From NCBI RefSeq assembly GCF_000422345.1, contig NZ_AULP01000004.1, positions 62,001 through 126,000 of the forward strand: a stretch of 64,000 nt of DNA, in the 5' to 3' direction. The notes beneath the pieces are model-generated. The model was not told the origin of the DNA and did no database searches. It saw only the letters and a list, made by a program, of their open reading frames with translations. Numbering within the stretch: the first letter of the stretch is position 1; each line of letters opens with the position of its first letter. This document shows positions 5,550 to 61,040 of this stretch, piece after piece. The DNA is from Neomelitea salexigens DSM 19753. Lineage in GTDB: Bacteria > Pseudomonadota > Gammaproteobacteria > Pseudomonadales > Spongiibacteraceae. The position numbers and the translations under genes were made by a program.

Positions 5550-6824
5550 TTATTCCTCTGGGGCGACCTTTCTCTGATCGCTATAGACCAGAATAGGCGG
5601 CGATTCACCATTGATCACCGAGGCATCCACCACAACCTTGCTCACATTGTCTGTCGACGGCAGGTCATACATGGTATCCAGAAGTACAGACTCCAGGATC
5701 GAACGCAGTCCCCGCGCCCCCGTCTTGCGAACCATGGCTTTCTCAGCAACAGCTCGCAGCCCATCTTCACGGAAGTCAACTTCAACACCTTCCATGTCAA
5801 AAAGCTTAGCGTATTGCTTAGTCAGCGCATTACGCGGCTGAGTCAGGATACTGACAAGCGCCTCAGCATCGAGCTCCTCGAGCGTCGCAATCACGGGTAG
5901 ACGGCCGACAAACTCGGGGATCAAGCCGTAGCGCACCAGATCCTCTGGCTCAACGTCAGCCAGCACTTCACCCACATTGCGCGATTCGTCCTTGCTTTTA
6001 ACCTCAGCACCAAAGCCAATACCGCCTTTTTCTGAGCGGTCGCGAATAACGCGATCAAGACCTGCAAAGGCACCGCCACAGATAAACAGGATATTGGAGG
6101 TATCAACCTGTAAAAATTCTTGCTGAGGGTGCTTGCGACCACCCTGAGGGGGTACCGACGCAACCGTACCCTCAATTAACTTCAACAGCGCTTGCTGAAC
6201 ACCCTCACCGGAGACATCGCGGGTAATTGAGGGGTTATCTGACTTGCGAGAGATTTTGTCGATCTCATCGATGTAGACAATACCCATCTGGGCTTTTTCA
6301 ACATCGTAGTCGCACTTCTGCAACAGCTTCTGAATGATGTTTTCAACATCTTCACCGACATAACCGGCTTCTGTCAGCGTTGTCGCATCAGCAATCGTGA
6401 ACGGGACATCCAGCAAGCGAGCGAGCGTCTCGGCCAGCAACGTCTTACCGCTGCCAGTTGGCCCCACTAACAAGATATTACTCTTGCCCAGCTCTACTTC
6501 ATCCTTGCTTTTATCGCCATGGCGAAGTCGCTTGTAGTGGTTGTATACTGCAACCGCCAGCACCTTTTTGGCGCGCGCCTGACCAATAACGTACTGATCC
6601 AGGGTCGCGTTAATTTCTTGCGGCGACGGCAGTTTATCACTGCCCGCCTCACTGGCCGCTTCCTGAACCTCTTCACGGATAATATCGTTACAGAGGTCCA
6701 CGCATTCATCACAGATAAATACCGAAGGCCCCGCAATCAGCTTGCGTACTTCATGCTGACTTTTGCCGCAAAACGAACAATACAGCAACTTGCCGTTGTC
6801 ATCTGCGCCGTCTTTACTACTCAT
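5550..6824 (-). CDS. clpX: ATP-dependent Clp protease ATP-binding subunit ClpX
   Basis: Encodes 424 residues, the same length as E. coli ClpX. The N-terminal zinc-binding domain has the four cysteines (about 16, 19, 38, 41). The AAA+ domain has Walker A GPTGSGKT and Walker [10 protein letters not shown]. ClpX unfolds tagged substrates and feeds them to ClpP, which is encoded just upstream. I chose the ATG at 6824, which has AAGGTGA about 6 nt upstream; an in-frame TTG two codons earlier is too close to that site. A GC-rich hairpin without a U-run lies between clpP and clpX, so the two are probably cotranscribed. Confidence 0.97.
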
Positions 6825-57610: not shown

Positions 57611-57634
57611 AAAGGGCCGGAATGGCCCTTTTTT
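57611..57634 (+). terminator. Rho-independent terminator after folE
   Basis: Perfect 7-bp stem AAGGGCC/GGCCCTT with a 5-nt loop and a run of six T, about 40 bp after the folE stop. Confidence 0.92.
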
Positions 57635-57735
57635 ATTGCCACATCATTGACCAAATTACGGTATGCGTCGCCGCGACGGAGCCAAACAGCTATTCTCTGT
57701 CTTGTATAACACCCCAGAACGAGACAAAAAATAGC

Positions 57736-58743
57736 GTGACCACTACAAGACCCTTGTTCGACAGCTACCCGCAACTGAACGGCGCCCTACCCTGGCTACC
57801 CCTCGCTGACCTACCCACGCCGGTTGAACCAGTATCCGGAATTGGCAGCAATGCATGGATTAAACGCGACGACCTCTCCCACGCGGTGTATGGCGGCAAC
57901 AAACTCCGCAAGCTGGAATTTATCTTGGCCGATGTTCTGGCGCGTGGCAAAACGCATGTAATCACCTTCGGCGCCACGGGTACCAACCACGGCGTTGCCA
58001 CCGCCATGCTGTGCCAACAATTGGGCCTGCGTTGCACGGTGCTGTTATTTGAACAACCGCCCTCTACCACCGTGCGCGACAACCTCGCGCGAATGCGACA
58101 CTTTGGCGCCGAGCTACAATTTTGTGGCTCACTCGCCAATACCGTGCGGCATTACTACCTTCACCCCAAGCGCCTGTCACGCAGCCACTACTTTCTGTTT
58201 GCCGGCGGCTCCAACGTTGCCGGAACCATGGGCTTTATCAACGCGGCATTTGAATTGAAGCAGCAAATCGACACCGGCCAGTGTCCACTGCCCAGCCAGA
58301 TTTTCGTGCCCGTTGGCTCCTCAGCCACCCTTGCGGGCTTAACTATTGGCGCTGCGCTAGCAGGCATAGAAAGCGATATTATTGGCATAAGGGTCGCCCC
58401 TTCCCACTTTGGCATCATTCCCACCTGCACCCCTGCCACGGTAAATCAACTCATCAGGCAAACATGCGCCGCGCTGACAAAAGCAGGCGTCTCACTGCCA
58501 ACAATACCCACCGCCAAACTGATCGACAGTTACTATGGCGATGGCTACGGCGTGGCCACCAAAGCGGGAAGCAGCGCCACGGACAAGTTCGCCGAATGCG
58601 GCATTACCCTGGATCAAACCTATACTGCCAAAGCGGCAGCGGCGTTTTTAGACGCCGCAAGGCAAAGTACTGAGGTACAGCTATATTGGCACACGTTTAA
58701 TTCGCGGCCGGTTGAAAGAGTTATTTCAGAGAAATTGGAATGA
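57736..58743 (+). CDS. PLP-dependent D-cysteine desulfhydrase / ACC deaminase-like enzyme
   Basis: Encodes 335 residues of the ACC deaminase/D-cysteine desulfhydrase group: WIKRDDLSHAVYGGNKLRKLEF (PLP lysine in GGNK), TFGATGTNHGVA and VGSSATLAGL. Whether it acts on D-cysteine, D-serine or another amino acid is unknown. It starts at GTG 57736, after the folE terminator. Confidence 0.83.
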   Translation: MTTTRPLFDSYPQLNGALPWLPLADLPTPVEPVSGIGSNAWIKRDDLSHAVYGGNKLRKLEFILADVLARGKTHVITFGATGTNHGVATAMLCQQLGLRCTVLLFEQPPSTTVRDNLARMRHFGAELQFCGSLANTVRHYYLHPKRLSRSHYFLFAGGSNVAGTMGFINAAFELKQQIDTGQCPLPSQIFVPVGSSATLAGLTIGAALAGIESDIIGIRVAPSHFGIIPTCTPATVNQLIRQTCAALTKAGVSLPTIPTAKLIDSYYGDGYGVATKAGSSATDKFAECGITLDQTYTAKAAAAFLDAARQSTEVQLYWHTFNSRPVERVISEKLE

Positions 58744-58772
58744 AAAGGATCTAGGCTCCATTACCTCGCTTG

Positions 58773-59592
58773 CTACCATGTACCGACAGCGACATTATGC
58801 TGTACGCGGGGCATTTTTACTGAAACGTTTCCATTTATCTGAAGTTTTTGAGCCGTAGAAATAAGAATAGTCTGAATATACTGCTCGATCTCCGCCGTTA
58901 TCTTGGCAGCAGTTTCCTTAGCATCCACATTGTCCTTATAAGTAAAAAGTGTATTCTTATTTGCCGTTGGATTGTCTGGTAAAAACAGTCTAGCGCTTGT
59001 TACATCGCCTTCGCACTTAACATTAATAGCGAGCGCCCATTGCACCCCTGATAGTGCTGCATAGTGTGCAAAGCAATCTCTGTAGTTTTTTGCGGAACTA
59101 CCACAAGTCATCCATAAGTTAGACATCGCATCAGCAAACTGGTCACCAGATTCTCGTCGATGACGATGCAAGTTTTTAATAGCTTTCCTCATTGAGCTTG
59201 GAGGGTTTTTCAACATGCCCGCACTGCCGAGCATATCTAAACTAAAATCGATGCATGATCTCGACGCTTCGAAAAAGCCATCCACTGTAAAAAACAGCTC
59301 CGCAGCTAGCGGGCCTTCATAGTACGAATAGAAGAGCTCATCGACGGGCCGCCCCCCCCTTAACGCCGATTTTTATGGGAAAGCGATCTGGAGACATCTC
59401 TTCAATAGTCGAATATATCGCCTCAATCTTTCGTAAGTGATACTGACAGCGCCGGAGCTTGTAAAGACACTTTCCGGATTGATAGGCCCAAGCATTGTTT
59501 TTACCCTCACCCAATTTTTCGCCAATTGCGATAATAATCGCGCCAAACCAATCTGAAGAACCCACCACTGGAATACTGTTCGTCCCTTCCAT
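58773..59592 (-). pseudogene. Frameshifted gene with a HEPN-like R-x4-H motif
   Basis: Two adjacent reading frames on the minus strand join into one if a run of eight G (59352-59359) were seven: residues before the run (MEGTNSIPVV...IKIGVKGG) then continue RPVDELFYSYYEGPLAAELF into the downstream frame with no stop, giving 272 residues. As written, the frame ends 11 nt after the run. The downstream part is helical and contains NYRDCFAHY, an R-x4-H motif with the look of HEPN domains, which in toxin and defence proteins form RNases. The base composition is visibly more A/T-rich than its neighbours. No known family could be assigned; the gene may be broken, phase-variable, or miscalled. Confidence 0.7.
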
Positions 59593-59689
59593 TTCTCGTC
59601 GCTCACCTATTGTTTGGGGTGATTCCACTCAGCTATTTATGCAAATGAACAACCTAGCCCTGTATACGAATCAAGGTACAGCCCGTACA

Positions 59690-60559
59690 TTAAAACGAGA
59701 GACGAAAATGCTCCCTAACCGCCTCAGCCACTTCCTCAACGCAGCTATCCATATGGCAGTGATGGTCGCCATCAACATCCAGTGTGCTAAAGGCTTTCGG
59801 TCTGGCGTCGCTTAGTGCGAGTATTTCCTGGCCAAAGCCCTGTTTGGCGGCGATAAACAGCAGCGGCGCGTGAATGCCTTGCAGCACGGCCCGCCATTGC
59901 TCTGCGGTCAGTTTATGGGGGGAGGCGAGTGCAAGGCGGCGATCGCTGCGCCAATAAAATTTGCCGTCGTCACCCTGATAGGTACCGCGCTCGGCAATGG
60001 CACGAGCCGAACGCTTGCTCATGGGCATTACTTTAATACGCGCGGCGGCAGCGTCTTCCAGGGTATCAAACGCGCGTGGCGGTCGGCCCTGGTTGGAAAA
60101 CCCGTTTAGATAGCGCTGCAGCTGTTTGGGGAATTCTTCACCCGCTTGCGGGTCGGCCAGCAAGCCGTCGATGCAGACGACCGCGCGAATATTGTCTGGC
60201 ATAGCCGCCGCCAGCAGCGCCGCGATCATCGCACCGCGCGAGTGGGCCAACAGGCTGTATTGGGACCAGCCGAGTTGTTCGGCCACACCGCAGATAATTC
60301 GCAGATCGTCCCAAATGGCGTAGTTACCCGACGGCGGTTTGTGATCGCTATTCCCGTGGCCGGGCAGATCGAGCGCAACAATGCGCAGCGGATTGCCCTG
60401 CTGCTGGAGATACTCGGCAATGGCGGCAAAACTGGCGGCATTGTCCAACCAACCATGCAGGGCAAGCACTGGAATACCATCGACCTGGCCCCAGGCTTGC
60501 GCGGCTATGTGCAGACCTTCCACCTCAAAACTGAGCGATTCTGCTGAGACAGTCGTCAT
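59690..60559 (-). CDS. Alpha/beta hydrolase
   Basis: Encodes about 289 residues: VLALHGWLDNAASF (oxyanion region), ALDLPGHGNSDHKP, the nucleophile in LLAHSRGAMIA (Ser), and the histidine in DGDHHCHM. The substrate is unknown. The ATG at 60559 is 4 nt after the sixA stop; one at 60574 overlapping sixA is also possible. It lies downstream of gpsA-sixA in the same direction. Confidence 0.88.
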   Translation of the reverse strand: MTTVSAESLSFEVEGLHIAAQAWGQVDGIPVLALHGWLDNAASFAAIAEYLQQQGNPLRIVALDLPGHGNSDHKPPSGNYAIWDDLRIICGVAEQLGWSQYSLLAHSRGAMIAALLAAAMPDNIRAVVCIDGLLADPQAGEEFPKQLQRYLNGFSNQGRPPRAFDTLEDAAAARIKVMPMSKRSARAIAERGTYQGDDGKFYWRSDRRLALASPHKLTAEQWRAVLQGIHAPLLFIAAKQGFGQEILALSDARPKAFSTLDVDGDHHCHMDSCVEEVAEAVREHFRLSF

Positions 60560-60563
60560 AGCA

Positions 60564-61040
60564 CTAGCGGCCATTGTGAGCGTAATTCGGATAGTGACGC
60601 AGCCATTGCAAGTTGCCACAACCCGGGGCAAACACCTCGGCGTCAACGCGGGCCATACTGGCAGTTTGCAGCCCCCAATAGGATTGTGACTCGCCCTGCC
60701 AATGAGCAAGCACATTACTGAGCAACGGGTTGTGGCCCACTAGCAGTAGACGTTCACCTCGAAACGTCGCCAGCATATTATCGAGGTCTTCGAGTCGGTT
60801 ATCCGGCGTCAGGCAGGCTTTATTGCGCTGGGGTAGCTGCCAATCGGCATTGATAATGGAAGCGCTTTGCTGGGCGCGGCGGTAGGGGCTGACCCAGATT
60901 TCCTCGGGACGCCAATCTTGTTGGCAGAGCCACTGCGCCGCGGCTTCAACTTCGGCAATGCCGCGCTCGGTGAGTTCGCGTTCCATATCGGTGGCGGCAT
61001 CCCACGATGCCGCGCCGTGACGAATTAAGACTATTTCCAT
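60564..61040 (-). CDS. sixA: Phosphohistidine phosphatase SixA
   Basis: Encodes 158 residues: LIRHGAASWDAA with the catalytic RHG, and LLVGHNPLLS with the second histidine. SixA removes phosphate from histidines of HPt or PTS proteins. Its ATG overlaps the gpsA stop (TGATG). Confidence 0.92.
   Translation of the reverse strand: MEIVLIRHGAASWDAATDMERELTERGIAEVEAAAQWLCQQDWRPEEIWVSPYRRAQQSASIINADWQLPQRNKACLTPDNRLEDLDNMLATFRGERLLLVGHNPLLSNVLAHWQGESQSYWGLQTASMARVDAEVFAPGCGNLQWLRHYPNYAHNGR

What the first reader, a model, noticed from the sequence alone, without database searches (positions are those of the whole stretch)
58773..59592. Homopolymer frameshift in a HEPN-like gene
A run of eight G on the coding strand splits an otherwise open 272-codon gene; with seven G the frame continues through to 58773 without a stop. 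The downstream half has an R-x4-H motif (NYRDCFAHY) like HEPN RNases of toxin-antitoxin and phage-defence systems. Base composition differs from the housekeeping neighbours. Either the gene is an on/off phase-variable locus, a recent pseudogene, or the tract length is a sequencing error. There is no visible MNT-type antitoxin partner.
Basis: partly seen in the sequence, partly recalled or inferred. Interest (0 to 1): 0.7.

Follow-up and report, generated by a model that had tools for sequence, protein, structure and literature searches.

The report
Split gene for HEPN-like RNase
A short foreign gene is broken in two at a run of eight identical bases, and it belongs to a rare, so far unnamed protein family that carries the active-site pattern of HEPN-type RNA-cutting enzymes; whether the break is a switch, decay or a reading error cannot be told from one sequence.

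Summary
On the - strand a G8 tract (59352-59359) separates an 84-codon ATG frame (59592-59338) from a frame open to 58773; codon preference switches frame there. The gene is the only cargo of a 988-bp, 44% GC slot; the nearest relative genome has other cargo there. Family libraries do not know it, and the C half found no true relative in three genome sets of 194, 398 and 369. A motif scan gave seven distant relatives, a tblastn an eighth, a profile a ninth. W, G and R-x4-H are invariant in the first eight and the window, and were not in the scan motif. The model of an intact relative puts R-x4-H just after its third long helix, as in HEPN, but with modest confidence, and no profile or fold match to a known HEPN is significant. 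HEPN-like is supported, not proven. The tract is no proven switch. A real recent inactivation is my first choice; sequencing error and phase variation stay open. The halves were never joined.

The parts
58716..59703 (.). Variable slot: foreign 988-bp, 44% GC segment in the place of 522 bp of unrelated sequence in the nearest relative genome G013
   Evidence: blastn of window against a G013 stretch: alignment stops at 58715 and resumes at about 59704, 95-97% identity
59338..59592 (-). N-terminal piece: ATG to TGA, 84 codons; AGGTGA 10 bases upstream (59603-59608); perhaps the helix-1 part
   Evidence: ORF lists; codon preference; weak resemblance to the relatives
59352..59359 (-). G8 tract at which the two frames meet
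58773..59351 (-). C-terminal piece after the tract, 192 codons and stop; would hold helices 2-4 with the active-site motif
   Evidence: related to L121 and L152
59064..59081 (-). R-x4-H motif RDCFAH; R and H invariant in nine members
58938..58979 (-). PDNP-x7-FTY motif, used to find the relatives
57622..58743 (+). Left neighbour: PLP-dependent enzyme related to D-cysteine desulfhydrase / ACC deaminase, convergent
   Evidence: NCBIfam TIGR01275 E 8e-44, below its cut-off
59690..60715 (-). Right neighbour: alpha/beta-hydrolase-like protein
   Evidence: several NCBIfam hydrolase models, all below cut-off

Best explanation
A horizontally acquired, single-gene accessory locus for a standalone HEPN-like RNase of about 270 residues, carried in a variable intergenic slot, whose sequenced copy is out of frame at a G8 tract through a real and recent slip. 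The 84-residue product would lack the active-site half, so this copy is OFF. Shown: the split, the slot, the family and its invariant R-x4-H. Inferred: that an intact family member folds as a HEPN four-helix bundle, dimerises and cuts RNA with the R and H, probably to stop growth under phage attack or stress; that the loss is a one-way inactivation tolerated or favoured because such a gene is costly and dispensable. (The odds of the rivals run on two axes, fate of the gene and function of the protein, so they need not sum to one.)
For: Frame switch at the tract and otherwise open frame. Foreign composition and other cargo in the sister genome. Relatives in distant phyla with frames of 292-325 codons stop to stop (5 of the 6; L155 reaches the end of its stretch, L168 is cut), plus L121 (293 aa) and a 297-aa annotated plasmid protein. 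W, G, R-x4-H invariant in the 8 rows of A5 although not part of the scan motif, and in the plasmid member. Of 65 pattern places 37 have at least 40 open codons upstream, 8 of these have R-x4-H in the 45 residues before the pattern, and 6 of the 8 are the family members. Model of L152: long helices 97-136, 152-180, 205-224, 278-304, motif at 226-231, which fits the HEPN description in PMC3710099 (passages, and section 7 whole). 8 of 16 G8+ tracts of this genome, one of them 10 bases long, lie in one unbroken frame preferred on its strand on both sides. Over the stretch aligned to the sister 5 of 5 A/T runs of 7-8 have the same length; of 34 runs of 6, 22 are the same, 11 differ by a substitution in or beside them, 1 by a gap.
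Against: No HEPN model of Pfam, NCBIfam or PADLOC matches any of 8 members at E <= 1. Foldseek against PDB: 0 of 253 matches at E <= 0.001, and the first two rows are unrelated. HHalign against 13 HepT proteins: P 0.072, reversed controls 0.45 and 0.31. The link between the window subgroup (window, L152, L121, L129) and the L158 subgroup is not significant once the scan motif is masked (E 0.16 and 0.36; in the first an unrelated frame ranks above at 0.032). The N half matches the relatives only weakly (12th of 5001 and of 3778). Two short helices (228-232, 239-247) follow helix 3 in the model and the motif blocks have pLDDT 64 and 41. Single-sequence model of the window's own C half: pLDDT 39.9, useless. 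No reads, so an error is not excluded. No RNase or defence function was tested.
Confidence: 0.42

Rival explanations
1. The tract length is a sequencing or assembly error and the gene is whole in the organism.
For: Pseudogenes with a single lesion can be technical artefacts (PMC11017572, passages seen). A second gene of the same assembly, by eye a TonB-dependent receptor (no family search run), is also split at a C8 tract while the sister copy is one frame.
Against: 8 of 16 G8+ tracts, one of 10 bases, sit in a single unbroken preferred frame; in 35,093 bases aligned to the sister no run above 6 differs in length, though no G/C run above 6 lies in that alignment.
Confidence: 0.28
2. The G8 tract is a contingency locus that switches the gene on and off by slippage.
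For: G tract in the first third of a presumably costly gene, with no other lesion; another split gene with a C8 tract in the same genome looks like a TonB receptor, a class known for phase variation in other bacteria (recalled).
Against: Only one tract length is on hand; 1 G8 in the window against 1.76 expected and 16 in the 3.4-Mb genome (expectation computed for the window only); of the 16 own tract loci only L075 and L078 align to a sister G8+ locus across the tract, L073 only beside it; 8 bases is short.
Confidence: 0.2
3. The protein is a helical R-x4-H protein that is not a HEPN RNase, for example a non-catalytic binding protein.
For: No significant match to a known HEPN model or fold; a profile relative in G577 has Y in place of the H.
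Against: R and H invariant in nine members from distant phyla, with N or D after the R in 8 of 9; five HEPN-type chains, so judged from title and length, among the 50 weak Foldseek rows shown.
Confidence: 0.25
4. Two separate coding units, or a programmed frameshift, make the protein from the sequence as it stands.
For: Both frames look coding; a GTG at 59285 could restart the second frame.
Against: Relatives are single frames; a restart at 59285 would drop residues before helix 2; the shift needed is not the common -1 type (recalled).
Confidence: 0.04

Closest known systems
HEPN superfamily (PMC3710099; Pfam clan CL0291 as named there)
   Same: R-x4-H, mostly with N or D after the R, after the third of four long helices; an insert between helices 2 and 3; no MNT partner is needed for membership.
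   Different: No Pfam model matches; PDNP...FTY with two short strands follows the motif; 96 residues precede helix 1 in the L152 model; the acidic helix-2 residue is not constant.
HepT toxin of HEPN/MNT (PF01934; PDB 7bxo, 6m6w)
   Same: Among the HEPN-type rows of the weak Foldseek list; HHalign lays helix 2 and part of helix 3 on those of HepT (not significant).
   Different: About twice as long; no MNT partner; that HHalign alignment stops short of the motif and would leave the two R four residues out of step; the window's genome has no PF01934 match.
Csx1-type HEPN
   Same: Beta-hairpin after the R-x4-6-H motif (from PMC3710099 section 7).
   Different: No CRISPR genes beside the gene; no sequence match to such a family.

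Membership tests
HEPN superfamily | R-x4-6-H motif with a polar residue after R | tested here: met
   RDCFAH in the window; R and H invariant in the 8 rows of A5 and in the plasmid member; N or D after R in 8 of 9, I in L168
HEPN superfamily | Motif at the end of helix 3 of a four-helix up-down bundle | tested here: inconclusive
   Order and place fit in the model of L152, an intact relative, but mean pLDDT is 56.5, helix 1 is at 36-65 and the motif blocks at 64 and 41; window C half alone gave 39.9
HEPN superfamily | Significant profile or fold match to a known HEPN family | tested here: not met
   Pfam, NCBIfam, PADLOC; Foldseek PDB best HEPN-type row E 0.94; HHalign to HepT P 0.072
HEPN superfamily | Conserved acidic residue in helix 2 | tested here: inconclusive
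   D in window, L121, L129 and L152; E two columns earlier in L152, L121, L158 and L150 but T in the window; neither constant
HEPN superfamily | Metal-independent RNase activity | not testable with these tools
   needs protein
HEPN/MNT toxin-antitoxin | Adjacent MNT nucleotidyltransferase | tested here: not met
   slot holds one gene; neighbours are a PLP enzyme and a hydrolase
Phase-variable (contingency) locus | Tract length varies between reads or isolates | not testable with these tools
   no reads; no other copy of this gene in the 194, 398 and 369 genomes searched

The most novel reading that the evidence does not exclude
A standalone HEPN-like RNase of a previously unnamed family that is switched on and off by slippage of a G tract lying between helix 1 and the active-site half, so that a population keeps a few armed cells instead of using an antitoxin.
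Probability: 0.12. Interest if true: 0.75.

Novelty: new member of a known kind. Interest (0 to 1): 0.42.

Why it matters
It adds a rare, widely scattered protein family with the HEPN active-site pattern that the family libraries used here do not hold, and gives intact members that can be tested in a laboratory strain. If the tract proved variable, it would be a way of keeping a costly RNase without an antitoxin.

Tried and rejected
Led nowhere: Pfam, PADLOC, PHROGs and NCBIfam with both halves; PDB sequences with each half; C half in plasmids and phages, N half in plasmids, the slot DNA in plasmids and E. coli genomes; peptide-pattern scans, C half in genome and viral contigs, N half in viral contigs; C half in 194, 398 and 369 genomes (10, 15, 26; overlap of the sets not examined; the N half was not searched there). 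One search gave 21 rows at E <= 0.1 besides its own genome, one of them at 9.5e-4; I looked into eight: L048 is by eye an acyl-CoA-dehydrogenase-like frame and L049 a REP-type transposase, L050, L054, L055, L057 look like flagellar rod protein FlgC (65; FlgC also), L051 and L068 gave only short weak alignments; the other 13 were not opened. A second viral pattern around R-x4-H gave 3 loci, none a relative; a wider PDNP pattern gave 3 new viral loci, none a relative; alignment A1 found again only the contig of L121, L152 nothing in viral contigs or phages and only the same plasmid; L158 nothing in plasmids. AlphaFold of the C half alone was useless. The viral fold library had 0 of 451 matches at E <= 0.001. 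Rfam 0 matches in 58000-60500; no promoter by consensus; no repeat pair at the two slot ends, so no sign of an insertion-type duplication; integron sites were not searched for. Alignment A4 with the N half was dropped because MAFFT laid that half on the active-site part. Literature, by listing: four searches; 'phase variation' with 'HEPN' gave 3 papers, none of which looked to be about this; in PMC11017572 'HEPN' was only an author name. This is not proof that nothing is in print.

Full report
What is in the sequence. On the - strand, one search shows eight G at 59352-59359, preceded by an ATG at 59592 and followed by an open frame to 58773. The first frame ends at TGA 59338 after 84 codons; the second is open from 59372 (199 codons, 192 after the tract). 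I did not build or read through a joined protein. With a codon table from window genes, the frame before the tract and the frame after it each score best of six, and they are different frames; their absolute scores are below those of host genes. In 2000 dinucleotide shuffles of the slot 3 had a stop-free run of 192 codons or more. So this is most simply one gene split at the tract. A G8 is by itself unremarkable: 1.76 are expected in a shuffled window and 1 is found.

Where it sits. The gene is the only cargo between two convergent genes, a PLP-dependent enzyme and an alpha/beta-hydrolase-like gene. G013, the genome of the genus set whose copies of these two genes are nearest (93 and 96%), matches the flanks at 95-97% but has an unrelated 522-bp segment with a 107-codon frame, hydrophobic by eye, in place of the window's 988 bp. 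The window's segment has GC 0.444 against 0.515-0.615 around it. This is a foreign accessory gene in a variable slot. No MNT gene is adjacent, and the window's genome has no PF01934 (HepT-like) match.

Is it an orphan? At first sight yes. The halves matched nothing in PADLOC, PHROGs or NCBIfam and one weak Pfam row (E 0.14); the PDB rows were weak and unrelated. The C half in 194, 398 and 369 genomes found its own genome, and in the last set 21 further rows at E <= 0.1, one at 9.5e-4; the eight I looked into were chance in my judgement. Then a degenerate DNA pattern for PDNP-x7-FTY, taken from the C half, was scanned. Of 5 viral places one (L121) encodes a 293-residue relative (tblastn E 5e-11 for the eight loci compared, so not a database E-value). 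A tblastn with L121 against the plasmid collection found a hypothetical protein on a Mycolicibacterium rufum plasmid (WP_043416171.1, E 3e-7, 28% identity over 47% of L121's protein). Of 65 genome places with a slightly wider pattern, 6 are relatives by profile (E 1e-31 to 1e-7 among 3004 frames): L152 Chloroflexi, L158 Pseudohongiella, L164 Rhodomicrobium, L150 Eubacteriales, L155 Candidatus Thiodiazotropha, L168 Candidatus Desulfolinea (names from record titles). Five are frames of 292-325 codons stop to stop (L155 reaches the end of its stretch); L168 is cut. A profile of eight members then found one more among 369 genomes of the class, in G577 (E 1.5e-5), with Y in place of the H and a SIR2-like gene beside it. 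So the family is rare and scattered: own genome only among 398 with the 3-row profile, own plus one among 369 with the 8-row profile.

How firm is the family? The scan motif inflates the scores, so I masked it. Among 3004 frames the best match of the masked C half is L152 (E 0.0017), then L164 (0.29), L155 (0.36) and L168 (0.73); L158 is seventh at E 1.9 after two unrelated frames, and L150 is not listed. L121 has E 0.0005 for a set size of 8000, the plasmid protein 0.89. L158, L164, L150, L155 and L168 are plainly one subgroup (masked E 9e-15 to 2e-79), but L152 against L158 is not significant when masked (0.16 and 0.36, and in the first an unrelated frame ranks above at 0.032). The tie between the subgroups therefore rests on shared residues: W, G and R-x4-H are invariant in all eight rows of A5 and were not selected for. 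Of 65 pattern places 37 have at least 40 open codons upstream; 8 of these have R-x4-H in the preceding 45 residues, and 6 of the 8 are the family members, with the R at -27 to -32. N or D follows R in 8 of the 9 members with the motif (I in L168). None of the 8 members matches a HEPN model in Pfam, NCBIfam or PADLOC at E <= 1, nor any PHROG better than 0.056; single rows such as Polysacc_synt_C (E 0.0007), Cas8a (0.0074) and csx13_C (0.028) each fall on one member only.

Does it fold like HEPN? AlphaFold on the window's C half alone was useless (pLDDT 39.9). With the eight-row alignment and the intact relative L152 as query it gave pLDDT 56.5 and pTM 0.55. The order is helix 97-136 (pLDDT blocks 36-65), helix 152-180 (65-85), a short helix 193-199, helix 205-224 (86-87, falling to 64 at its end), then R226-H231, short helices 228-232 and 239-247, two strands around PDNP...FTY, and helix 278-304 (about 80 in its middle). 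PMC3710099 (passages from sections 2, 5-7 and 14, and section 7 as a whole; [quoted passage not shown] That fits in outline. But Foldseek against the PDB had 0 of 253 matches at E <= 0.001; the first rows are unrelated, and among the 50 rows shown are five chains that I take to be HEPN from entry title and length (6m6w_G, 7bxo_F, 7bxo_D, 2hsb, 6m6w_D; E 0.94-3.2, target TM 0.35-0.48). HHalign of the family core against 13 of 14 fetched HepT proteins gave P 0.072 against 0.45 and 0.31 for reversed controls; that alignment ends before the motif and would leave the two R four residues out of step. I therefore call it HEPN-like and do not file it as a proven member.

What the split does. In the L152 model a long helix precedes helix 2; the window's N half has a stretch (Y-H-L) like that region of L152, L121 and L129, but the match is weak: 12th of 5001 in a shuffle test and 12th of 3778 fragments (three relatives, region chosen by me). 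On this reading the tract lies between helix 1 and the active-site half, so the product of the copy as sequenced would be a short piece without the family motif.

Error, decay or switch? The genome has 16 distinct G8+ tracts (21 overlapping matches). By open frame and codon preference on its own strand 8 lie in one unbroken frame of 179-697 codons (L070, L075, L076, L077, L078, L084, L085, L086), 2 show a frame switch (this gene and L083) and 6 are unclear (L069, L071, L072, L073, L079, L089). L083 is by eye a TonB-dependent-receptor gene split at a C8 tract; in G013 the gene is one frame of 713 codons and has no long tract at that place. Of the 16 own tract loci only L075 and L078 align to a sister G8+ locus across the tract, and L073 only beside it, so such tracts seem to come and go. 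In 35,093 aligned bases against the sister there are 16 indels not a multiple of three, none at a run above 6; this says little on G/C runs, since no G/C run above 6 is in that alignment. No read data were available. A real recent inactivation is my first choice, error second, switching third.

Novelty. The family has no model in the libraries searched, and the two literature searches on phase variation and the one on standalone HEPN, seen as listings, showed no HEPN gene switched this way; that is not proof of absence. The kind, a standalone R-x4-H RNase-like accessory gene, is known; the family and its hairpin after the motif look new to the libraries used.

Noticed in passing
G000:C5 44866-44873 (L083 around 1500): A gene of the same genome that is by eye a TonB-dependent receptor is also split at a C8 tract; the sister genome has it as one frame without a long tract.
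   Followed up: partly
L043 about 5612-6133 (G013:C6): In the sister genome the same slot between the convergent genes holds another cargo, a 107-codon frame that looks hydrophobic.
   Followed up: partly
L201 1459-2178 and 2464-3441: A distant profile relative with R-x4-Y instead of R-x4-H lies beside a SIR2-like gene.
   Followed up: no
L158 6981-7988: The Pseudohongiella family gene directly follows a 335-codon frame without Pfam match that by eye begins HNH-like.
   Followed up: no
L155 954-1433: The Thiodiazotropha family gene lies beside a SUKH (SMI1/KNR4) gene, a class known as immunity proteins (role recalled).
   Followed up: no
window 59341-59592: The N half carries its own W...G...R-x4-H look-alike (RRCQYH), which made MAFFT align it with the active-site region; probably chance.
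   Followed up: no
window 58938-58990: The stretch around PDNP resembles the FlgC rod protein; taken as chance.
   Followed up: partly
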